Assembly (NCBI RefSeq): GCF_900099815.1
Contig: NZ_FNCW01000003.1
Span: 181,756 to 245,755 of the forward strand
Source: Psychroflexus sediminis
GTDB lineage: Bacteria; Bacteroidota; Bacteroidia; Flavobacteriales; Flavobacteriaceae
Direction: 5' to 3'
Length of the DNA: 64,000 nucleotides
In this document: positions 9,362 through 19,195 of the stretch, in pieces
Numbering within the stretch: the first letter of the stretch is position 1
How the letters are laid out: each line of letters opens with the position of its first letter
Notes under the pieces: model-generated
Told to the model about the DNA's origin: nothing
The model's database searches: none
What the model saw: the letters and a program-made list of their open reading frames with translations, nothing else
Made by a program: the position numbers and the translations under genes

Positions 9362-10669
9362 ATGACTCAAGAGTACACGAAATCTCAGGAGCTCCTCGAA
9401 AGGAGAAAAAACATCGTCGCTAATGGCGTTGGTGTTTTTAATACAGCAACCGTACAAAAAGCCAAAGGGGCCATCATTACAGATGTAGATGGTAATGAGC
9501 TTATAGATTTTGCCGGAGGTATTGGAGTTGTCAATGCAGGGCATTGTCCGGCTCCTGTCGTAAAGGCGATCCAGGAACAGGCCGAGAATTATCTTCATAC
9601 CAGTTTCAATGTAGTGACTTATGAACCTTATATCAGGCTGTGTGAAGAACTTGCAGATATTCTTCCTCACGGCGATAAAACCAAAGTCATGCTCATCAGT
9701 ACCGGGGCTGAGGCTGTAGAAAATGCTATAAAAATTGCACGTCAGGCCACCCAGAGACCAGCCGTTATTTGTTTTACTGAAGCCTATCACGGTCGTACAT
9801 TGATGGGAATGAGTCTTACCAGTAAGGTAAATTATAAGTTTTCATCGGGTCCTTTTGCGCCTGAAGTGTACCGGATCCCTTTTCCTAACTTCTACAAATA
9901 CCACGGTTCCCAAAGCATGGAAGAATTTGTGGAAACAGAGCTTAGAAGGTTAAAGGACAGTGCGCATAGTATTGTTGACATCAATAGTGTTGCTGCAATC
10001 ATTGTGGAACCCATTCAGGGTGAAGGCGGATTTAATCCGATTCCACAAAAATATATGGAAGGACTTCGCTCTTTTTGCGACGAACACGGGGTGATGTTGA
10101 TTTTTGACGAAATCCAGAGCGGTTTTTGCCGAACAGGACACTGGGCCAGCTGGCAGCACTACGGAGTGCAACCAGATTTGAGCACCTATGCCAAATCCAT
10201 GGGTTCTGGTCTTCCTATCGCCGCTGTTGTGGGCAGGGCCGAGGTTATGGATGCGGCTGGACCAGGTACGATTGGCGGCACTTATATAGGAAGCCCCGTG
10301 TGTTGCGCCGCAGCACTGGCCACCATTCAGTTTATGAAAGATGAAAACCTGAATGAACGCGCCATACATGTTGGTAAACTGATTACCAGCCGCATGGAAA
10401 AATTAAGCAGGCATTATCCTGAAATTGGTGATGTAAGAGGTATAGGGGCTATGATAGGTATAGAATTTATAAAAAATAATGATCCTGCAGATCCTCATAC
10501 GGACCTATGTTCTAAAATTGTCAAAGGTTGCGCTGAAGAGGGTCTGGTTCTCTTAAGTGCCGGAACTCACAAAAACGTTATACGCATTTTGTGTCCGCTT
10601 GTCATTACCGATGAACAATTGAACAAAGGTTTGGACATTATCGAAAATCAAATCAGAAAACATACTTAA
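9362..10669 (+). CDS. gabT: Class III aminotransferase, 4-aminobutyrate type
   Basis: A 435-residue PLP-dependent aminotransferase. Length and motifs fit GABA transaminase, which converts GABA and 2-oxoglutarate to succinate semialdehyde and glutamate. Visible are FAGGIGVVNAGHC near residue 50, STGAEAVENAIKIAR for cofactor phosphate binding, EAYHGRT, the Asp in IFDEIQSGFCRTG that contacts the pyridine nitrogen, and the Schiff-base Lys278 in AKSMGSGLP. It is the first gene of a seven-gene co-directional run ending in a succinate-semialdehyde-type dehydrogenase, the expected partner. Other omega-amino donors such as putrescine, cadaverine or 5-aminovalerate are possible, because class III enzymes are broad. 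Confidence 0.88.
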   Translation: MTQEYTKSQELLERRKNIVANGVGVFNTATVQKAKGAIITDVDGNELIDFAGGIGVVNAGHCPAPVVKAIQEQAENYLHTSFNVVTYEPYIRLCEELADILPHGDKTKVMLISTGAEAVENAIKIARQATQRPAVICFTEAYHGRTLMGMSLTSKVNYKFSSGPFAPEVYRIPFPNFYKYHGSQSMEEFVETELRRLKDSAHSIVDINSVAAIIVEPIQGEGGFNPIPQKYMEGLRSFCDEHGVMLIFDEIQSGFCRTGHWASWQHYGVQPDLSTYAKSMGSGLPIAAVVGRAEVMDAAGPGTIGGTYIGSPVCCAAALATIQFMKDENLNERAIHVGKLITSRMEKLSRHYPEIGDVRGIGAMIGIEFIKNNDPADPHTDLCSKIVKGCAEEGLVLLSAGTHKNVIRILCPLVITDEQLNKGLDIIENQIRKHT

Positions 10670-10802
10670 AACTCAAGTCTCAAGGATTGTCAATATAAGG
10701 ATAATTAACAATCCCATTGCGTATTGATTTTACGCCAGGATTAAATTAGGCATTAATAATTTGAAAACATAGGTTTTCAAATAACACGAAATAAATAAGA
10801 TT

Positions 10803-11735
10803 ATGAATCCATTTGCAATAGCAGGAATACAAATGAAGATTTCAGCGGTTAGTTCCAATGTGGAAATGATGAAGCTGAAACTCGATATCACGATGAGTCT
10901 CTACCCCTGGGTAGACATGGTTCTTTTTAGTGAGTTATGTGGTTATGGTCCTTTAACCCACAATGCCCAGGAAATCCCGGGAGAATTTGAAAAAGAGATG
11001 CAGGCCATGGCCAAGAAACACGGCATCTGGCTCTTGCCAGGCTCTATATTCGAAAAAAGTGAAGGCAAGATCTATAATACGGCTACAGTGATTAACCCGG
11101 AGGGTGAAATCGTTACGCGTTACAGAAAAATGTTCCCGTTTTATCCTTACGAAGTAGGGGTGACCCCGGGCTCAGAATTTTGTGTGTTCGATGTGCCGGG
11201 TGTCGCCAGATTTGGTTTGTCCATTTGTTATGACATGTGGTTTCCGGAAACCGTGCGTACGCTGGCAGTCATGGGCGCAGAAGTAATTTTGCACCCTACG
11301 ATGACAGGAACCATAGACAGAGATGTGGAATTATCTATCGTAAGAGCGATGGCAGCGGTTAACCAATGCTATTTCTTCGATGTGAATGGACTGGAATCCG
11401 GAGGTAGTGGCAGATCCATCGTCTGTGGACCTGATGGCAGGGTCATTTATCAGGCCGAAGGTAATGAAGAGATTTTCCCGCTGGAACTCAATATCAATCG
11501 GGTGAAAAGAAGTCGGGAACTGGGAATTTTACGATTAGGACAGCCTTTAAAAAGTTTTAGAGATCACATCGGCCAGTTCGGTATATACCAGCAGGGTGCT
11601 CAACTGCCTTATCTGAATTCGTTAGGGCCGCTTATCAAACCGACAAAGCTAGGTAATCTGGCAGAGTTAAAAATGAAAGAACAAGGCTATCAGGCCCCTC
11701 AGGATCCGGCAGGTTACAAAGGATTTGGGGGATAA
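10803..11735 (+). CDS. Carbon-nitrogen hydrolase (nitrilase superfamily)
   Basis: A 310-residue cytosolic amidase of the nitrilase superfamily. The catalytic triad is complete: Glu44 (FSELCGYG), Lys109 (RYRKMFPFYP) and Cys142 (SICYDMWFPE). The family hydrolyses amides, N-carbamoyl compounds or nitriles. Within this cluster a role in freeing an amine from an amide or carbamoyl intermediate is plausible, as N-carbamoylputrescine amidase does in the agmatine route, but no agmatine deiminase is encoded nearby. The WFPETVR motif after the Cys recalls amidases rather than true nitrilases. It is 133 bases downstream of the aminotransferase and 20 bases before the VOC gene. Confidence 0.88.
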   Translation: MNPFAIAGIQMKISAVSSNVEMMKLKLDITMSLYPWVDMVLFSELCGYGPLTHNAQEIPGEFEKEMQAMAKKHGIWLLPGSIFEKSEGKIYNTATVINPEGEIVTRYRKMFPFYPYEVGVTPGSEFCVFDVPGVARFGLSICYDMWFPETVRTLAVMGAEVILHPTMTGTIDRDVELSIVRAMAAVNQCYFFDVNGLESGGSGRSIVCGPDGRVIYQAEGNEEIFPLELNINRVKRSRELGILRLGQPLKSFRDHIGQFGIYQQGAQLPYLNSLGPLIKPTKLGNLAELKMKEQGYQAPQDPAGYKGFGG

Positions 11736-11755
11736 TAAAAATTTAAAGCAAAACT

Positions 11756-12154
11756 ATGGGAGGAACATCACCAAAAGTTAAACGACAGCAAAAAGATTTT
11801 ATAAGTTGGTTTGAGATTCCAGCGATCAATTTTCAGCAATCTGTAAATTTTTACAATCAGATCTTTGGAATTGACATGGAAACCAATATTGATGACAATT
11901 ACGCCATGGCCTTTTTTCCAGTGAGTAATGGTATAGGGGGCTCAATTGTAGCGGGTCCCGGTTCTACGCCCGGAGACTCTGGTCCTCTCATTTATTTAAA
12001 TGCCGGTAAAGATCTCAATCTGGTTCTTGGAAATGTTGAAAACGCAGGAGGAAGAATTGTAATGCCTAAAACGCTTATCAGCGAAGAATCTGGTTATTTC
12101 GCCATTTTCATTGATTCAGAAGGAAACAAATTAGCACTTTATTCAAGCCAATAA
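11756..12154 (+). CDS. VOC family protein (glyoxalase/bleomycin-resistance fold)
   Basis: A 132-residue single-domain vicinal-oxygen-chelate protein. The opening ISWFEIPAINFQQSVNFYNQ is the typical first strand and helix. The C-terminal FAIFIDSEGNKLALYSS is the typical last strand pair with the expected acidic residue region. The short N-terminal tail MGGTSPKVKRQQKD is basic. Such proteins bind metals or small molecules; the exact role here is unknown. It ends five bases before the decarboxylase start, so it is very probably co-transcribed and may be an accessory protein of the cluster. Confidence 0.82.
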   Translation: MGGTSPKVKRQQKDFISWFEIPAINFQQSVNFYNQIFGIDMETNIDDNYAMAFFPVSNGIGGSIVAGPGSTPGDSGPLIYLNAGKDLNLVLGNVENAGGRIVMPKTLISEESGYFAIFIDSEGNKLALYSSQ

Positions 12155-12159
12155 TACGT

Positions 12160-14904
12160 ATGATAAATTCAAAACTTCAAATTTCAAATTGTTATAATAT
12201 TAATCAACTTCGACTCGAATCCTGGAATTCATTAAAGTTAGAATCTTCTATACTTAGTGAGAATTCTAAGGGTTCAACCGAAGAGAAGAAGCAGATTGAA
12301 AAAGTCAAAAACATTCTAAGAACGCTGGAAAGCATCGAAAGTTACTTTGCTCTTCCAGGAATTCATCGGTTAGGATTATTGTTTGAAATGATGGAAAGGC
12401 AAGAATACACTGCTTTTGCTCACAAAATTTCTGAAATCACTAAACTGCTTGTCAGTGATAAATACAGGAGTAATCCTAATGCTTTAGAAGATGAGGATTT
12501 AAAGATAGATCAGCTGGAAGACATTGATAAATACGATGGTAAGGGTAAAAATTATTTTGAGGTTCTTTTTGTGGAGGATATTTCTTTGCAGGAAGAGAAT
12601 AAACTACGAAGTGACTTAAAAGAGGTTGGTACTAGCAGTGATCAATTCAATTATGGGGTCGTGGTCCAAAAAACCTTTGAGGATGCAATGATAGCTTTGA
12701 AATTCAATAGTAATATTCAGGCTGTAGTGATACGTTATGCACCGCCTTACAAATCCAAGAAAATCAGTCCGGTATTGAAACCGTTTGTTCAGAGCATTAT
12801 CGATTTGGACATGAATTCAAAATCAGAAATACGTTTAGGTCCGGTTTTAGGTCGTTTGGTTAAGAAATTCAGACCTGAGATCGATACGTATTATGTTACA
12901 GATACATCCTTAGCAAATCTGAAAGACAATACCTTAAAAACTTTTGACAGAATTTTTTACCGGGCAGAAGATGTTCAGGAATTACACCTGACCATTCTTA
13001 GAGGAATTTATAAGCGTTACGAAACTCCGTTTTTTTCAGCTTTGAAAGAATACAGTAAAAAGCCTACTGGAGTATTTCATGCGATGCCGATCTCTCGCGG
13101 GAATTCAGTTTTTAAATCCAGATGGATTAATGATTTTGGAAATTTCTATGGCAGAAACATGTTTTTAGCGGAAACGTCTTCGACAAAAGGAGGCCTGGAT
13201 TCATTACTTCAGCCAACAGGAACTCTGAAGACCGCTCAAAAAATGGCCAGTAAAGCCTATGGTTCGTTGAATACTTTTTTTGTGACTAATGGAACTTCAA
13301 CATCCAATAAAATTGTTGTACAAGCTTTGGTGAAACCGGGGGATATTGTTTTAATCGACAGAGATTGTCATAAATCACATCATTACGGGTTAGTGCTTTC
13401 CGGTGCTTATCCGGTGTATCTGGATTCCTACCCGATAGAAAAATATTCAATGTATGGAGCAGTTCCACTGCAACAAATAAAAGATAAGCTGCTGCAATTG
13501 AAAGAAGCTGGGAGAATGCAGCTGGCAAAAATGCTATTACTTACCAACTGTACATTTGATGGATTTGTTTACAATGTAGAAAAAGTGATGGAAGAAATCC
13601 TGGCGATCAAACCCGATATGATTTTCCTCTGGGATGAAGCCTGGTTTGCTTTTGCAGGTTTCACCTACAATTATAAGCAAAGAACCGGAATGTATGTAGC
13701 AGATAAACTCAGCAAAAAATATAAGACGGATAAATATAGAATTGAATACGAAGAACATATAAAAGGCCTCAAGAAAGGGGAGGTATCAAAGCTTCCAGAC
13801 CCAGATAAGGTTCGGATAAGAGTCTATTCAACACAAAGTACGCACAAAACACTGAGCAGTTTTAGACAGGGCTCAATGATTCATATATGGGATCAGGATT
13901 TCAGGAAGAAAACGCAAAATACGTTCATGGAAGCCTATATGACTCATACCTCTACATCACCGAATTATCAAATTCTTGCCTCGCTCGATGCAGGAAGACG
14001 GCAAGTACAATTTGAGGGTTATGAACTCGTAGAAAAAAGCATCGAATTAGCCATGGTTTTTAGAGCCAAGGTCAACGATCATCCAAAATTAAAAAAATAC
14101 TTTGATGTCTTAACTGTAGGTGATTTTATTCCAAAGGAATACAGATCCTCTGGGTTATCGGAATATTATAATCCAAAGACAGGCTGGAATCGAATGGATA
14201 AAGCCTGGGAAGCGGATGAATTTGTATTAGACCCCACAAAGATCACTATACATATTGGAAGAACAGGCGTGGATGGAGATACCTTCAAGAACAAATACCT
14301 GATGGATCAATTCAATATCCAAATCAACAAAACATCACGGAACACCGTTTTATTGATGACTAATATTGGTACAACCAGAGGTAGTATTACATACTTGACT
14401 AACGCATTGCTTAAAATTGCAGATGAATTGGACAGGGAGGAATTGTCTCTTACTACCGAAGAGAATAAAATTCATCAGGCTAAAATCAATTCTTTAACCC
14501 AGGATTTTCCTCCATTGCCAGACTTTAGTTATTTTCATCACTCTTTTCAAGCGGTTCCAGGAGTTCCAGGCGGAAACATCAGGGAGGCCTTCACCTTAGC
14601 TTACAGTGAAGAGAATTACGAATTTGTGCCATTATCAGAATGCAGACCTACCATGGAAGGAGGAAGAACTCTGGTGGCCTCTTCATTTATAATTCCGTAT
14701 CCTCCAGGATTTCCTGTTTTGGTACCTGGACAGGTAGTGAGTGAAGAAATTATTCACTTTTTAACCGTTTTGGATGTCACCGAAATTCACGGTTATGCAC
14801 CAGAACTCGGGTTGAGAGTATTTAAAGACAGTGTATTGAACAGGCAACAAACAGTTACCTCCATGGGGAGTAATAAAAAGAAAAATTTAATTGATAAAAA
14901 ATAA
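12160..14904 (+). CDS. Large Orn/Lys/Arg decarboxylase-family PLP enzyme
   Basis: A 914-residue fold-type I PLP enzyme of the Orn/Lys/Arg decarboxylase group, which makes putrescine, cadaverine or agmatine from basic amino acids. The core shows FVTNGTSTSNKIV (cofactor phosphate contacts), DRDCHKSHHYG, the Asp in LWDEAWFAFAGF, and the Schiff-base Lys563 in STHKTLSSFRQGS. The first 250 or so residues contain an extra helical region, followed by a receiver-like wing domain. Family members are usually 710-760 residues, so about 150 residues at the N-terminus are additional. The C-terminal domain (GGRTLVASSFIIPYPPGFP) is the standard one. It starts five bases after the VOC gene. Which amino acid it uses cannot be read from the sequence, and a non-decarboxylating reaction is possible. 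Confidence 0.88.
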   Translation: MINSKLQISNCYNINQLRLESWNSLKLESSILSENSKGSTEEKKQIEKVKNILRTLESIESYFALPGIHRLGLLFEMMERQEYTAFAHKISEITKLLVSDKYRSNPNALEDEDLKIDQLEDIDKYDGKGKNYFEVLFVEDISLQEENKLRSDLKEVGTSSDQFNYGVVVQKTFEDAMIALKFNSNIQAVVIRYAPPYKSKKISPVLKPFVQSIIDLDMNSKSEIRLGPVLGRLVKKFRPEIDTYYVTDTSLANLKDNTLKTFDRIFYRAEDVQELHLTILRGIYKRYETPFFSALKEYSKKPTGVFHAMPISRGNSVFKSRWINDFGNFYGRNMFLAETSSTKGGLDSLLQPTGTLKTAQKMASKAYGSLNTFFVTNGTSTSNKIVVQALVKPGDIVLIDRDCHKSHHYGLVLSGAYPVYLDSYPIEKYSMYGAVPLQQIKDKLLQLKEAGRMQLAKMLLLTNCTFDGFVYNVEKVMEEILAIKPDMIFLWDEAWFAFAGFTYNYKQRTGMYVADKLSKKYKTDKYRIEYEEHIKGLKKGEVSKLPDPDKVRIRVYSTQSTHKTLSSFRQGSMIHIWDQDFRKKTQNTFMEAYMTHTSTSPNYQILASLDAGRRQVQFEGYELVEKSIELAMVFRAKVNDHPKLKKYFDVLTVGDFIPKEYRSSGLSEYYNPKTGWNRMDKAWEADEFVLDPTKITIHIGRTGVDGDTFKNKYLMDQFNIQINKTSRNTVLLMTNIGTTRGSITYLTNALLKIADELDREELSLTTEENKIHQAKINSLTQDFPPLPDFSYFHHSFQAVPGVPGGNIREAFTLAYSEENYEFVPLSECRPTMEGGRTLVASSFIIPYPPGFPVLVPGQVVSEEIIHFLTVLDVTEIHGYAPELGLRVFKDSVLNRQQTVTSMGSNKKKNLIDKK

Positions 14905-14908
14905 ACGT

Positions 14909-16600
14909 ATGAAATCAGCAAAAAATAAGGATTCAGATAATAAAAAAGCGAAAGAGCAATCTCATTCTAAACAGGCAACGATTACGGGAAAGGATGAAAC
15001 TAAAATCCCGGTTCGCGGAAATCAAAAGTCCAAAAGTAAAAAAGCCTCTACTTCAACTAAAGCCGGTTCATCTCCCAAAAGTAAAACCCTTACAAAACCA
15101 AGTAAAGCTTCTCCTGGGACTGCACCAAAAAAACGGGGAAGACCTAAAAAAGTAGAATTGAACGGCATATCTGACATCAGAAGGGCTTTTCATAAAAATG
15201 AAGAACCCTTATATTTCATAAGTGCTACCAATTTTAATCTCTTGGGAGCAGATGAATGGATAAAAGGTTTCAGATTTATTACTTATATAGAATGTTTTGA
15301 TGGCCAGCACCCAAACGTTTTCTCTCCTAAAAATGAAATACCCCATGACGATTTTGAAGGGATAGAAGATATCAACAACTACCTGCTACAGCACCCTGAA
15401 GTACAAGACTATATAAAAACCAGAAGTGTCGATGGAAGAGCAGGAAAGGCTATGTTTCTTATGTTTAATGAAGAAACTGAAAGACTTGCCGAAAAACTGG
15501 GCTTGGAGATTATGTTTCCCAAAGCTGAAATGAGAACCTTTCTGGATAATAAAGTCAATACCAATAGAATTGCGGAAAAAGCTGGCGTTGCCTGTGTTCC
15601 TTATGTCCTTTCAAAAGTTAAAAATTACGATCACCTGTGTGAAGTTTCTAAGCATTTAGGCAATGAACTCGTTATACAGACTCCTTTTGGAGATTCTGGT
15701 CATACGACTTTCTTTATTTCTAATGAAGAAGAATACCTTGAATATGCAGATGAAATCGAAGAAGAATCAGAGGTTAAAATCATGAAACGTATTCGTTGCA
15801 GAGGAACAGCGATTGAAGCCTGTGTGACCAGACATGGTACCATTGTTGCACCACTTATGACCGAGCTGGTTGGTTTCAAACAATTAACACCTTATGAAGG
15901 GGGCTGGTGTGGTAACGAAATTTATCCGGATGCATTTACGCCGGAGTTGAGACAAAAAGCAGTGGATTACACCCAGCTTTTTGGAAACCAGCTAAGAGAA
16001 GAAGGTTATAAAGGATATTTTGAATTGGATTTTCTTATAGATCAAGACAATGGAGAAATTTACTTAGGAGAGCTCAATCCGAGAGTTACCGGTGCTAGTT
16101 CGATTACCAACCACGCCGTTTTCGCCCTGGCAGATGCTCCACTATTTGTATTTCATATTTTAGAATGGATGAACATCGATTATGCTTTGGATGTAGAAAA
16201 ACTAAACAAGCGCTGGTCCAATCAGCAAAATATAGACAGCTGGAGCCAATTGATTGTGAAGCATACCGAAGACACCATTGAATATGTTACTGAATCTGCG
16301 AAATCTGGTATTTGGAAAATGTACGATACAGGACACATTCAATTTGACAGGATGGATACGCATAGACGTGCTGTGCAAAATGAAAACGAAGCTTTTTTCA
16401 TGAGAATAGCTAAAAATGGTGATTATCTCTATGAGGGTGCAGACATGGGTATTTTGGTGACCAGAGGTCGAATGATGACAGACGATTTTAAACTGAATGG
16501 CAGAGCTAAAAAATGGATCAAGGCTATTCGATCTAAGTTTTCCTCGGTTGTAGTTGAAGATAAACGCAAACCAAATTTGTCCGGATCTTTAACCAAATAA
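14909..16600 (+). CDS. ATP-grasp ligase with lysine-rich AT-hook N-tail
   Basis: A 563-residue protein beginning at the ATG at 14909, four bases after the decarboxylase stop; an in-frame TTG at 14891 would overlap that gene and is less likely. Residues 1-83 are a Lys/Ser/Thr-rich tail with an AT-hook-like PKKRGRPKK at 73-81. The remainder is an ATP-grasp domain of the biotin carboxylase/carbamoyl-phosphate synthase kind, with TPFGDSGHTTFF (phosphate loop), EACVTRHG and the Mg-binding GELNPRVTGASS. No biotin carrier domain or biotin-dependent partner lies nearby, so joining a carboxylic acid to an amine through an acyl phosphate is more likely than biotin carboxylation. Substrate unknown. The DNA-binding-like tail on an enzyme is unusual. 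Confidence 0.82.
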   Translation: MKSAKNKDSDNKKAKEQSHSKQATITGKDETKIPVRGNQKSKSKKASTSTKAGSSPKSKTLTKPSKASPGTAPKKRGRPKKVELNGISDIRRAFHKNEEPLYFISATNFNLLGADEWIKGFRFITYIECFDGQHPNVFSPKNEIPHDDFEGIEDINNYLLQHPEVQDYIKTRSVDGRAGKAMFLMFNEETERLAEKLGLEIMFPKAEMRTFLDNKVNTNRIAEKAGVACVPYVLSKVKNYDHLCEVSKHLGNELVIQTPFGDSGHTTFFISNEEEYLEYADEIEEESEVKIMKRIRCRGTAIEACVTRHGTIVAPLMTELVGFKQLTPYEGGWCGNEIYPDAFTPELRQKAVDYTQLFGNQLREEGYKGYFELDFLIDQDNGEIYLGELNPRVTGASSITNHAVFALADAPLFVFHILEWMNIDYALDVEKLNKRWSNQQNIDSWSQLIVKHTEDTIEYVTESAKSGIWKMYDTGHIQFDRMDTHRRAVQNENEAFFMRIAKNGDYLYEGADMGILVTRGRMMTDDFKLNGRAKKWIKAIRSKFSSVVVEDKRKPNLSGSLTK

Positions 16601-16625
16601 ACAAATATTAATTATAAATCTCTAT

Positions 16626-17768
16626 ATGCAGATTAATTTTAAGACGATTTCAGAACCTGGTTTACCTGGATCAAAATGGCAAAACCTGTTCTTTACGCAT
16701 TGGGAGGCTTATGAAAAGTGGTTAATTGAAAATGAGAAAGACGTTCCAACTGCAGATTTGGAAACCTCTCAATTAGCGCTCAAAACTTACATGCCAGAAT
16801 TATGGCCAACTTATGAACGACTTTGCCATCTTGTGGATGCAAATGCATTGGGAGCTAAATTTCTCACTGGTTATCAGCCTCCATTTTACGTAAGCGGATG
16901 TTCAAACGCGATTTTGGAAGGGGATGATTTTCAGCTCGTTCGGAATTACGATCATCATCCAGACCTATTTGAAGGTGTACAGATCCTTACCCGATGGAAT
17001 CAAAAAAAAGTAATCGCTACCAGTGATTGCTTAATTGGTGTTCTGGATGGTATAAATGAAGACGGTTTGGTGGTTTCATTAACCTTTGGGGGAAGAAAAA
17101 TTACAGGCCAAGGATTTGGCATCCCCTTCATTTTAAGGTACATACTTGAATTCTGTTCTAATGTGGATGAGGCCGTCGAAGCCTTAATCAGAATACCATC
17201 CCATATGGCTTATAATGTAAGTGTTGCAGACGAGTCGGGAAGTTATAAAACGATAAGAGTCGCTCCCGGCGAAAAAGCTGTCATAACAAACTCTGCGTAC
17301 ACGACAAATCATCAAAAAAAGGTGGACTGGCCAGAGAATGCCAGATTTAATAAAACAGTTGAGCGTTCTTTGTTTTTAAGCCACTTATTGGAAGAGGATG
17401 GTCTTTCATCGGAAGAATTAGTATCAGCTTTTCTTAGGAAACCTCTTTATAATGATCTTTTCAAAGAAGGTTTTGGAACGCTATTCACTGCATCGTATTA
17501 TCCAAAATCAGGTCGGGTTGAATTGCACTGGCCAAATAAAAAAATCAGTCAAAGTTTTGATGATTTTCAGGAAAGAGAAGAAAACATTCAACTCCTGCAG
17601 AGAAGAAAACGACGACCAAAAAACAATCAGTTTGCGATGCCATATAAAGGCCATACTGCCAAAATTATTACATATTCAACTCCTCTTTTGGACAAAGCAA
17701 CCCCTAAAAAGCCTAAAGAAATAACTAAAGAGTTTTTGAAAGAAGTCTGGTCAGATACAAAATCGTAA
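16626..17768 (+). CDS. C45-type autoproteolytic acyltransferase/hydrolase
   Basis: A 380-residue Ntn-hydrolase of the C45 group (acyl-CoA:6-aminopenicillanate acyltransferase-like). These enzymes cut their own chain before a Cys, which becomes the N-terminal nucleophile; here the site is Gly91-Cys92 in YVSGCSNAI, followed by LVRNYDHHP, the conserved RNxD motif. SMAYNVSVADESG and VITNSAYTTNH are further family blocks. There is no signal peptide, so it acts in the cytosol. It makes or breaks amide bonds between acyl groups and amines, which fits the ligase directly upstream (25 bases). A penicillin substrate is very unlikely here. Confidence 0.85.
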   Translation: MQINFKTISEPGLPGSKWQNLFFTHWEAYEKWLIENEKDVPTADLETSQLALKTYMPELWPTYERLCHLVDANALGAKFLTGYQPPFYVSGCSNAILEGDDFQLVRNYDHHPDLFEGVQILTRWNQKKVIATSDCLIGVLDGINEDGLVVSLTFGGRKITGQGFGIPFILRYILEFCSNVDEAVEALIRIPSHMAYNVSVADESGSYKTIRVAPGEKAVITNSAYTTNHQKKVDWPENARFNKTVERSLFLSHLLEEDGLSSEELVSAFLRKPLYNDLFKEGFGTLFTASYYPKSGRVELHWPNKKISQSFDDFQEREENIQLLQRRKRRPKNNQFAMPYKGHTAKIITYSTPLLDKATPKKPKEITKEFLKEVWSDTKS

Positions 17769-17836
17769 TTAAATTAGAAATTAAAAATTTCCTTTCAAAT
17801 TTTAATTTTGAAGAGGTGTAATAAAATGATAGACAA

Positions 17837-19195
17837 ATGAAATTTCAAAGTATAAATCCTTATAACGGAGAGCAATTTGCAGAATATGATTCACTTACTC
17901 CCGAAGAACTTACTGCTAAACTCAAAGCTTCTTCTGAAGCCTTTAAGCAGTGGAAAAAGACGCCACTATCAGAAAGAGCAGTACTTCTCAAAAAAGCTGG
18001 ACAAATCCTGAGAGACAATGTTGACGAATATGCTGAGATAATTACTTTAGAAATGGGCAAGCCCATTTCTGAATCCAGAGCTGAGGTTAACAAATGTGCC
18101 TGGGTGTGCGATTATTATGCTGACCATGCATCAGAATTTTTGGCAAACGAAGTGATAAAAACTGATGCTACTCACAGTTACGTAAGACATGATCCTATCG
18201 GAACTGTTTTTGCAGTGATGCCCTGGAATTTTCCTTTTTGGCAGGTCTTTAGATACGCAGCGCCTACGCTGACGTCCGGAAATACAGCCCTGTTAAAACA
18301 CGCCCCCAATGTGTTTGGATGTGCGCTGAAAATTGAAGAGGTATTTAAAAAAGCAGGTTATCCGGAAGGTGTTTTTCAGAATTTGATTGTTCACCATGAC
18401 ACCTCAGAGCAAATTATAGCTCACGATACTGTTCAGGCGGTGACTTTAACAGGAAGCGGTGGAGCTGGAGCAGCGGTGGCTAAACTTGCTGGACAACATC
18501 TTAAAAAGAGCTTACTGGAACTAGGGGGCAGTAACTCCTTTATTGTATGGGAAGACGCCGACATCAATCAGGCTGTGAAAATAGCTGTGACTGCCAGAAT
18601 GATGAATTGTGGGCAAAGTTGTATCGCAGCGAAGCGGTTTATTGTTTTAGAAGGTGTTTACGATGAATTTGTTTCTAAATTTAAAAAAGCTGTTGGTGAG
18701 TTGAAACGCGGAGACACGATGGAGGATTCTACACAAATTGGACCACTCGCTAGAAGAGATTTAGCAGACCAACTTCACAGTCAGGTTGAAAGATCTCTTG
18801 AAAAAGGCGCCGAATTAATTCTGGGAGGCAAGCAGGATAACTGCTTCCACGAGCCCACCATCCTTGGACATGTGAAACCAGGCATGCCGGCCTTCGATGA
18901 GGAAACCTTTGGGCCGCTGGCGGCTATGATTAAAGCTAAAACTATTGAGGAAGCTTTTGAACTTTCTGAAAATTCCAGATTTGGATTGGGTGTGACGGTC
19001 TTTACCGAAGACATCCAAAAAGCCATGGACATGGCTGAAAAAATTAGCGACGGGGCTTACTTCATCAATGAACTGGTCAAGTCTGATCCGCGACTTCCTT
19101 TTGGGGGAACCAAAGGCTCCGGTTACGGAAGAGAACTGGCCAAAGAAGGCATGATGGAGTTTGTCAACAAGAAAACGGTCTATGTGAAGGCTTAA
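17837..19195 (+). CDS. NAD(P)-dependent succinate-semialdehyde-type dehydrogenase
   Basis: A 452-residue aldehyde dehydrogenase of the shorter succinate-semialdehyde dehydrogenase group. Catalytic Glu228 lies in LLELGGSNSF and the nucleophile Cys262 in NCGQSCIAAK. VMPWNFPFWQ (substrate tunnel/NAD domain) and the C-terminal LPFGGTKGSGYGREL are present. It oxidises an omega-oxo acid aldehyde to the diacid. As the last gene of the cluster beginning with a GABA-type aminotransferase, it would convert succinate semialdehyde to succinate. A 4-aminobutanal-type substrate is an alternative. It converges on the DUF5916 gene with only 15 bases between stops and no visible terminator. Confidence 0.9.
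   Translation: MKFQSINPYNGEQFAEYDSLTPEELTAKLKASSEAFKQWKKTPLSERAVLLKKAGQILRDNVDEYAEIITLEMGKPISESRAEVNKCAWVCDYYADHASEFLANEVIKTDATHSYVRHDPIGTVFAVMPWNFPFWQVFRYAAPTLTSGNTALLKHAPNVFGCALKIEEVFKKAGYPEGVFQNLIVHHDTSEQIIAHDTVQAVTLTGSGGAGAAVAKLAGQHLKKSLLELGGSNSFIVWEDADINQAVKIAVTARMMNCGQSCIAAKRFIVLEGVYDEFVSKFKKAVGELKRGDTMEDSTQIGPLARRDLADQLHSQVERSLEKGAELILGGKQDNCFHEPTILGHVKPGMPAFDEETFGPLAAMIKAKTIEEAFELSENSRFGLGVTVFTEDIQKAMDMAEKISDGAYFINELVKSDPRLPFGGTKGSGYGRELAKEGMMEFVNKKTVYVKA

What the first reader, a model, noticed from the sequence alone, without database searches (positions are those of the whole stretch)
9362..19195. Seven-gene amine/polyamine cluster with ligase, Ntn-hydrolase and decarboxylase
Seen: seven same-strand genes with gaps of mostly 4-133 bases encoding a class III aminotransferase (Lys278), a nitrilase-superfamily hydrolase (Glu44-Lys109-Cys142), a VOC protein, a large Orn/Lys/Arg-type decarboxylase (Lys563), an ATP-grasp ligase, a C45 Ntn-hydrolase (Cys92) and a succinate-semialdehyde-type dehydrogenase (Cys262). 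Known: the E. coli Puu route glutamylates putrescine (PuuA), oxidises it (PuuB, PuuC), frees GABA (PuuD) and converts GABA to succinate. Inference: here the ligase, which is unrelated to PuuA, may conjugate an amine formed by the decarboxylase; an aminotransferase and a dehydrogenase would process the free end, and C45 or nitrilase would remove the blocking group. No PuuB-like oxidase is present, so transamination would replace it. This architecture matches no pathway I can name.
Basis: partly seen in the sequence, partly recalled or inferred. Interest (0 to 1): 0.82.

Follow-up and report, generated by a model that had tools for sequence, protein, structure and literature searches.

The report
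Conserved ligase-decarboxylase operon feeding GABA breakdown
A group of neighbouring genes found in scattered marine and soil bacteria looks like an undescribed way of turning amino-acid nitrogen compounds into GABA and then succinate, using an ATP-driven ligase and a decarboxylase whose real substrates are not known.

Summary
The seven genes are real and as described. Five (aminotransferase AT, nitrilase-type NIT, PLP decarboxylase DC, ATP-grasp ligase LIG, aldehyde dehydrogenase ALDH) form a core kept together in Bacteroidota, Ignavibacteriota and an acidobacterial genome; VOC and C45 are optional. Relatives of NIT, DC, LIG and C45 also cluster on alpha- and betaproteobacterial plasmids. LIG is sporadic (7 of 395 Bacteroidota genomes over cut-off).

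AT and ALDH look like an ordinary GABA-to-succinate pair. LIG is called 'biotin carboxylase' but seems to lack the bicarbonate residues. DC belongs to the Rv2531c branch, activity unknown. In Shinella, LIG and C45 sit in an arginine/ornithine-to-GABA operon with a racemase-arginase fusion; in Cupriavidus necator, NIT-LIG-C45 lie six genes after one 54% identical to PuuC.

Best reading, not proved: LIG blocks a distal amine (ornithine, or the amine made from it), DC decarboxylates, NIT and/or C45 unblock, and GABA is burned. It works like, but is not, the Puu route. The blocking group is unknown. No structure model was obtained. Searches found no paper on the cluster.

The parts
9362..10669 (+). 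AT: class III aminotransferase, GABA-aminotransferase-like (Lys278)
   Evidence: PF00202 1.6e-124; TIGR00700 501.4 bits, just under its cut-off of 506.65; 44% to E. coli GabT, 42% PuuE, 34% PatA
10803..11735 (+). NIT: nitrilase-superfamily amide hydrolase (Glu44-Lys109-Cys142); core gene
   Evidence: PF00795 4.8e-32; no NCBIfam cut-off reached; 71 of 71 assessable loci
11756..12154 (+). VOC-family protein, optional member
   Evidence: PF00903 1.3e-4; 63 of 70 assessable loci
12160..14904 (+). DC: large PLP-dependent decarboxylase of the Rv2531c branch of the OKR_DC superfamily (Lys563)
   Evidence: PF01276 4.4e-78; PDB 9n0n 1.5e-244; separate clade from AdiA/CadA/SpeC 100/100, long outgroup branches
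14909..16600 (+). LIG: ATP-grasp ligase called 'biotin carboxylase' (NF005096); likely start ATG 14909 (mechanical ORF from TTG 14891)
   Evidence: NF005096 826 bits vs 684; best PDB matches of the family profile are biotin-carboxylase-type chains, 1.2e-8
16626..17768 (+). C45-family Ntn hydrolase (Cys92), optional member
   Evidence: NF040521 150.5 bits vs 85; 50 of 74 assessable loci
17837..19195 (+). ALDH: succinate-semialdehyde-type dehydrogenase (Cys262)
   Evidence: PF00171 7.1e-136; NF006915 505.6 bits, cut-off 730; 74 of 79 assessable loci, 4 of them at 25-34% identity

Best explanation
A catabolic operon that delivers arginine/ornithine-type nitrogen compounds to GABA and on to succinate by an amine-blocking route that works like the E. 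coli Puu pathway but is built from unrelated parts. LIG uses ATP to join a small acid (unknown; glutamate is the obvious candidate) to the distal amine of ornithine, or of the amine that DC makes from it. DC removes the alpha-carboxyl group; its lost side-chain Glu is explained if the distal nitrogen is already an amide. The free end is deaminated and oxidised. NIT, helped or replaced by C45 in some lineages, then cleaves the amide and frees GABA, which AT turns into succinate semialdehyde and ALDH into succinate. Shown: conserved physical linkage. By homology: the enzyme classes, and AT and ALDH as the GABA-to-succinate end. Inferred: every substrate of LIG, DC, NIT and C45, the order of LIG and DC, the blocking group, and which enzyme deaminates the free end.
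For: Core of five kept across phyla. GABA end: AT 44% GabT; the Roseobacter and acidobacterial ATs pass the TIGR00700 cut-off (542.8 and 532.2 vs 506.65); MocR-type regulators beside the clusters of both Cupriavidus plasmids. Amine/arginine context: Shinella operon with agmatinase (212 vs 174), 5-guanidino-2-oxopentanoate decarboxylase (737 vs 500), D-amino acid dehydrogenase (473 vs 383), LIG, C45 and a fusion of an ornithine-racemase-like (393, cut-off 480) and an arginase-family domain; an ALDH 54% identical to E. coli PuuC six genes upstream of NIT-LIG-C45 on the same strand in Cupriavidus necator; weaker, a NIT-like stretch (45% over residues 4-238, on a strand with no annotated gene) about 5 kb from another 5-guanidino-2-oxopentanoate decarboxylase in Ensifer. 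A S. meliloti relative of that decarboxylase has sevenfold higher activity with 5-amino-2-oxopentanoate (PMC7268258, passages), which gives 4-aminobutyraldehyde; such amino-aldehydes cyclise unless blocked (recalled). DC: the Glu of CadA/SpeC is Asn723; PGH motif replaced by P-x-[S/A]-R. At least one of NIT and C45 was found in every set that could be judged (C45 truncated in L088 and split in L091).
Against: AT looks specific for GABA and no other amine-deaminating enzyme is in the core, so the oxidation of the free end has no dedicated gene. AdiA, which takes arginine, also lacks the Glu (Thr there), so the DC argument is weak for arginine. Two of the 11 LIG plasmids examined carry no DC and one has it far away, so LIG does not always have DC beside it. 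Two DC paralogues in a separate clade, which keep the same unusual residues, sit beside aspT antiporters, hinting at an acidic substrate; they are 2 of the 4 DC genes examined that have no LIG beside them (the others are L093 and L096). The window's genome has a separate SpeA-type/agmatinase locus, and no ornithine source is shown in the Bacteroidota clusters.
Confidence: 0.35

Rival explanations
1. Glutamate side: LIG joins glutamate by its gamma-carboxyl to an amine, DC decarboxylates the gamma-glutamyl amide (or glutamine) to a 4-aminobutyryl amide, and NIT/C45 release GABA, which AT and ALDH burn. No amine oxidation is needed.
For: All five core enzymes fall in one line and AT/ALDH keep their ordinary roles. 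DC has conserved Arg313, Arg569 and Asn723, and Arg727 in all but one of the rows compared; aspT beside two DC paralogues; a glutamate-dehydrogenase-type gene within about 5 kb of DC in 3 rhizobial loci; a dicarboxylate symporter in Cupriavidus oxalaticus; the NIT profile's best PDB match is omega-amidase Nit2. Recalled precedent: BtrJ/BtrK in butirosin synthesis.
Against: Does not explain the arginine/ornithine operon in Shinella nor why a cell would spend ATP to decarboxylate glutamate.
Confidence: 0.2
2. Amide-forming route like DavBATD: DC is an O2-using oxidative decarboxylase that turns ornithine, arginine or lysine into an omega-amino (or guanidino) amide, NIT hydrolyses it, and AT and ALDH finish.
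For: NIT, AT and ALDH are the same kinds of enzyme as DavA, DavT and DavD (recalled); NIT lies among arginine genes in Shinella.
Against: No precedent known to me for such chemistry in this decarboxylase superfamily; LIG, with DC beside it in 79 of 79 assessable loci, has no role.
Confidence: 0.12
3. Citrulline route: DC decarboxylates citrulline to N-carbamoylputrescine, NIT hydrolyses a carbamoyl compound as AguB does, LIG and the rest process putrescine.
For: Best NCBIfam match of NIT is AguB (80.8 bits, cut-off 410); Asn723 in DC could bind a ureido group; an ADI-family ORF exists in the genome.
Against: NIT is far below the AguB cut-off and about as near to other amidases; no deiminase among the annotated plasmid neighbours that I read.
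Confidence: 0.1
4. Biosynthesis: LIG and DC make a small amide product (signal, metallophore or compatible solute), and NIT, C45, AT and ALDH recycle it.
For: ABC importers after LIG-C45 in Roseobacter (oligopeptide type by annotation), rhizobia (type not tested) and before NIT in Cupriavidus necator (peptide/nickel/opine type); nif genes nearby on 2 of 5 rhizobial plasmids examined.
Against: AT in 67 of 67 and ALDH in most loci point to carbon flow; outside the seven genes no family is kept in more than 11 of 80 loci, so no exporter is conserved.
Confidence: 0.1

Closest known systems
E. coli Puu pathway (gamma-glutamylated putrescine route, PuuABCDE)
   Same: ATP-dependent ligase, aldehyde dehydrogenase, amide hydrolase and GABA aminotransferase in one gene group; GABA as hub; PuuC-like ALDH near the Cupriavidus necator version
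   Different: LIG has no match to PuuA, NIT/C45 none to PuuD, no PuuB match in the window; a decarboxylase is part of the core
Rv2531c-type amino acid decarboxylase (PDB 9n0n/9n0o)
   Same: DC aligns over residues 13-899; Arg313, Arg569 and Asn723 counterparts shared in the printed alignment
   Different: In that alignment Rv2531c has Ile at the Arg727 position and Gln at Tyr603; its activity is described as not clarified (PMC12910592, passages)
NF005096 / PRK06524 'biotin carboxylase'
   Same: LIG passes its cut-off
   Different: No carrier or carboxyltransferase among the ten proteins scanned; the segment after the conserved Arg differs from biotin carboxylases in the profile alignment (residue roles recalled)
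E-64 fungal pathway: PLP decarboxylase products with amide-forming enzymes
   Same: Amines from PLP decarboxylases and amide bond formation in one pathway; includes an ATP-grasp ligase with no detectable identity to characterised ones (PMC12568646, passages)
   Different: There the polyamine is joined by an ANL-family enzyme, not by the ATP-grasp enzyme; biosynthetic, fungal
S. meliloti arginine network (CATCH-N)
   Same: Arginine/ornithine to GABA and succinate through 5-amino-oxopentanoate, 4-aminobutyraldehyde and GABA (PMC7268258, passages)
   Different: No word beginning with 'ligase' occurs in its main text; no blocking step in the passages seen

Membership tests
Puu pathway | Glutamine-synthetase-type ligase PuuA | tested here: not met
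   No blastp match of LIG to PuuA at E<=10 and no tblastn match of PuuA in the window at 1e-3; the rest of the genome was not searched for it
Puu pathway | PuuB oxidase and PuuD hydrolase | tested here: not met
   No PuuB or PuuD match in the window at 1e-3; NIT and C45 do not match PuuD
Puu pathway | Gamma-glutamyl-putrescine as intermediate | not testable with these tools
   Needs enzyme assays
GABA aminotransferase (TIGR00700) | Score over the curated cut-off | tested here: inconclusive
   Window AT 501.4 vs 506.65, not met by 5 bits; Roseobacter 542.8 and acidobacterial 532.2 pass
Orn/Lys/Arg decarboxylase (classical AdiA/CadA/SpeC) | PLP lysine in STHK and OKR_DC_1 domain | tested here: met
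   PF01276 4.4e-78; Lys563 kept
Orn/Lys/Arg decarboxylase (classical AdiA/CadA/SpeC) | PGH motif and (CadA, SpeC) side-chain Glu | tested here: not met
   P-x-[S/A]-R and Asn723 instead; AdiA itself has Thr at that Glu
Biotin carboxylase | Score over the cut-off of the NCBI model so named (NF005096) | tested here: met
   826 vs 684 bits
Biotin carboxylase | Bicarbonate-activating residues and partner carrier/transferase | tested here: not met
   Segment differs in the profile alignment; no partner among the genes scanned; residue roles recalled
N-carbamoylputrescine amidase AguB (TIGR03381) | Score over the curated cut-off of 410 | tested here: not met
   80.8 bits
DavBATD lysine route | Lysine monooxygenase DavB (flavin) | tested here: not met
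   No flavin enzyme among the seven genes; the rest of the genome was not searched
C45 autoproteolytic family (NF040521) | Score over cut-off and nucleophilic Cys | tested here: met
   150.5 vs 85; Cys92 invariant; autoproteolysis not testable

The most novel reading that the evidence does not exclude
A blocked-amino-acid catabolic route: the ATP-grasp ligase acylates the distal amine of ornithine before decarboxylation, and the Rv2531c branch of decarboxylases has changed from cationic to N-acylated (amide) amino acids, so that both the DC branch and the Shinella racemase/dehydrogenase/keto-acid-decarboxylase branch share one blocked substrate and one unblocking step. This would give a first function to a 'biotin carboxylase' family and a substrate class for an orphan decarboxylase branch.
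Probability: 0.22. Interest if true: 0.8.

Novelty: new variant of a known kind. Interest (0 to 1): 0.55.

Why it matters
If right, bacteria have a second, independently assembled way of blocking an amine to make GABA, scattered across phyla and carried on some rhizobial plasmids with nif genes. It would correct the annotation of a named 'biotin carboxylase' family whose members, in the loci examined, lie beside decarboxylase, amide-hydrolase or GABA genes, and it would supply concrete substrates to think about for a decarboxylase branch whose activity a 2026 census still lists as uncertain (PMC12910592, passages).

Tried and rejected
Rejected: LIG as a true biotin carboxylase (and no partner genes), although it passes the NCBI model of that name; DC for polyamine biosynthesis, because a SpeA-type decarboxylase, agmatinase and deoxyhypusine-synthase-like ORF lie together elsewhere in the genome (the first and third read by eye); C45 as the obligate unblocking enzyme; AT as a putrescine aminotransferase (the tree has long outgroup branches, so only the identities count). 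I first argued that loss of the side-chain Glu excludes a cationic substrate; E. coli AdiA has Thr there, so this was withdrawn for arginine. Gene neighbours kept in subsets (methionine-gamma-lyase-like, Lrp-like and dihydrolipoyl-dehydrogenase-like genes, 11 loci each, named by eye; gamma-glutamyltransferase in 4 Psychroflexus loci) follow kinship and were not used. Sigma-70-type promoter matches were no more than in shuffles (28 vs 28.7); that scan does not cover Bacteroidota promoters. Paper searches whose listings showed nothing on the cluster: (15 of 58 papers listed); of the papers listed only passages of PMC12910592, PMC4569260, PMC7268258 and PMC12568646 were seen. The cryoEM paper on Rv2531c is not held. 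In Mtb the homologue was reported not crucial for growth on arginine (heading of PMC4569260), which neither helps nor hurts here.


Full report
I call them AT, NIT, VOC, DC, LIG, C45 and ALDH. LIG more likely starts at the ATG at 14909, four bases after DC, than at the TTG at 14891 found mechanically.

Conservation was tested by choosing loci by LIG alone. Of 136 relatives in the species-level genome collection the best 80 were kept. Counting a locus if the gene was found or the contig reaches far enough (a rule that leans slightly upwards), AT is present in 67 of 67, NIT in 71 of 71, DC in 79 of 79, ALDH in 74 of 79, VOC in 63 of 70 and C45 in 50 of 74. Four of the ALDH matches have only 25-34% identity and are probably other dehydrogenases; clustering gave 70 loci with the ALDH. 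All seven genes are in 43 of 80 loci, 42 in the same order and strand. The genes AT to LIG are packed tightly (median gaps 2.5, 15, 3 and 17 bases); C45 and ALDH are looser. The 80 include close relatives, but by record title also Ignavibacteria, a Calditrichaeota, Balneolaceae and an Acidobacteria bin. All five core genes are seen in the ignavibacterial L062; the Balneolaceae locus L076 lacks ALDH, and the Calditrichaeota and Acidobacteria loci are on short contigs. As a further check, seven genomes met in two genome samplings were fetched: the five core genes lie round LIG in 7 of 7, VOC in 4 and C45 in 5; one of them is L010 again. Two same-genus genomes and one at a contig end were not fetched. 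A second genome of the acidobacterial sample has AT, ALDH, NIT, DC and LIG together at 43-56% identity, without C45; its LIG frame carries one stop codon. The module is sporadic: LIG is over its family cut-off in 7 of 395 Bacteroidota genomes, 3 of them the window's own genus, is present in 6 of 120 genomes of the same family, the window's own included, and is over cut-off in 1 of 297 genomes of the acidobacterial sample, the centre itself (2 at E<=1e-60).

Twelve genomes without C45 next to LIG were searched for it: 10 of the 24 loci counted as lacking it, and 2 whose contigs end too early to judge. Ten have no match and two only partial matches of 27-28%. So C45 is dispensable, and NIT is the amide hydrolase of the minimal set.

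On plasmids of alpha- and betaproteobacteria LIG matches 32 records. I examined 11 of these. DC is beside LIG in 8 of 11; in one it is far away on the same plasmid, in two the plasmid has none. NIT is within the stretch in 6 of 11, C45 in 11 of 11 (truncated in L088, where a second copy of the set with a full-length C45 lies nearby; split in L091). The five rhizobial ones have DC, LIG and C45 without NIT in the stretch; an ABC importer follows in those with annotation, and nif genes are near in 2 of 5. Thus at least one of NIT and C45 was found in every set that could be judged.

The informative neighbourhoods are these. Roseobacter ponti: gabT, NIT, DC, LIG, C45, oligopeptide-type importer. 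Cupriavidus oxalaticus: a MocR-type regulator, NIT, DC, LIG, C45, a dicarboxylate symporter. Cupriavidus necator N-1: an ALDH 54% identical to E. coli PuuC, six transporter and other genes, NIT, LIG, C45 and a MocR-type regulator. Shinella: a NIT/Lrp pair facing an amino acid permease, agmatinase, 5-guanidino-2-oxopentanoate decarboxylase, ALDH, LIG, C45, D-amino acid dehydrogenase, a 595-residue protein that joins an ornithine-racemase-like half to an arginase-family domain, and RidA. The 'Roseateles' XES5 plasmid has the same annotated order. I read this operon as arginine to ornithine to D-ornithine to 5-amino-2-oxopentanoate to 4-aminobutyraldehyde to GABA; a S. meliloti relative of the decarboxylase has sevenfold higher activity with 5-amino-oxopentanoate (PMC7268258, passages). 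A weaker case is Ensifer L111: a NIT-like stretch about 5 kb from such a decarboxylase, on a strand without an annotated gene. NIT relatives below 41% identity lie among genes of no clear bearing in the two loci read (L112, L113), and a C45 relative in Sulfitobacter (41%) has no LIG, DC or NIT annotated nearby.

What the parts are. AT is closest to GabT and PuuE (44 and 42%) and further from PatA (34%); it scores 501.4 against the GABA-aminotransferase cut-off of 506.65, and its Roseobacter and acidobacterial counterparts pass. ALDH is of the succinate-semialdehyde type, though under every curated cut-off shown. LIG passes NF005096 'biotin carboxylase'; its profile's best PDB matches are biotin-carboxylase-type chains (1.2e-8, mostly over the pre-ATP and early ATP-grasp parts), with carbamoyl-phosphate synthase chains weakly (0.0048), and the stretch after the conserved Arg, which in biotin carboxylase holds bicarbonate (recalled), differs. 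NIT reaches no curated amidase cut-off; its profile's best PDB match is Nit2 (omega-amidase role recalled). DC is a full-length relative of Rv2531c, whose activity is described as not clarified (PMC12910592, passages). A tree puts DC and its relatives apart from AdiA, CadA and SpeC (100/100, with long outgroup branches). Where CadA and SpeC have Glu, DC has Asn723; AdiA has Thr. The PGH motif of all three is P-x-[S/A]-R in the DC rows shown, and Ser before Gln is Arg569. Two DC paralogues of a separate clade, with the same changes, lie beside aspT antiporters; the other two DC genes examined without LIG beside them (L093, L096) group with LIG-linked ones and have no aspT in the stretch.

Interpretation. 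AT and ALDH alone would take GABA to succinate, so DC, LIG and NIT should deliver GABA. The ornithine/arginine operon in Shinella and the PuuC-like gene in Cupriavidus necator favour a blocked-amine route: LIG blocks, DC decarboxylates, the free end is oxidised, NIT and/or C45 unblock. Against it stand the missing enzyme for the free amine, the plasmids without DC, and the aspT neighbours, which fit a glutamate-type substrate better. I hold the best reading at 0.35 and list four rivals.

Membership. It is not the Puu pathway: no PuuA, PuuB or PuuD match in the window. It is not a DavBATD set, nor an AguB cluster by score. No paper on the cluster appeared in the listings; the library holds only open-licence papers. 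Structure models could not be obtained, so the ligase's nearest fold remains untested.

Noticed in passing
L087:13779-15563 (Shinella zoogloeoides plasmid); a gene of the same length and annotation in L086: A 595-residue fusion of an ornithine-racemase-like domain (1-354) and an arginase-family domain (415-564), annotated as alanine racemase.
   Followed up: partly
L094:8962-11688 and L095:8944-11685: DC paralogues without LIG beside two aspT aspartate-alanine antiporters each, in one case with an aspartate 4-decarboxylase: a possible antiporter-coupled decarboxylation system.
   Followed up: partly
L089:641-4475 and L091:1133-4960: Nif11-type leader peptide with radical SAM methyltransferase and epimerase genes upstream of the DC-LIG genes on rhizobial plasmids.
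   Followed up: no
window:6514-8247 +: A gamma-glutamyltransferase gene upstream of the cluster, found there in only 4 loci, all Psychroflexus.
   Followed up: partly
window:43762-45261 -: A second aldehyde dehydrogenase, 38% identical to PuuC and 36% to GabD, far from the cluster.
   Followed up: no
L107:51-3562 (own genome, C26): SpeA-type arginine decarboxylase, agmatinase-family gene and a deoxyhypusine-synthase-like ORF together (first and third read by eye): a separate polyamine biosynthesis locus.
   Followed up: partly
plasmid hits H24-H30, L088, L091: Partial or split LIG, DC or C45 copies on rhizobial plasmids, suggesting gain and decay.
   Followed up: no
window:8700-19400: Terminator-like hairpins are more common than in shuffles (17 vs 8.7, sd 3.5), but nearly all lie inside genes.
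   Followed up: no
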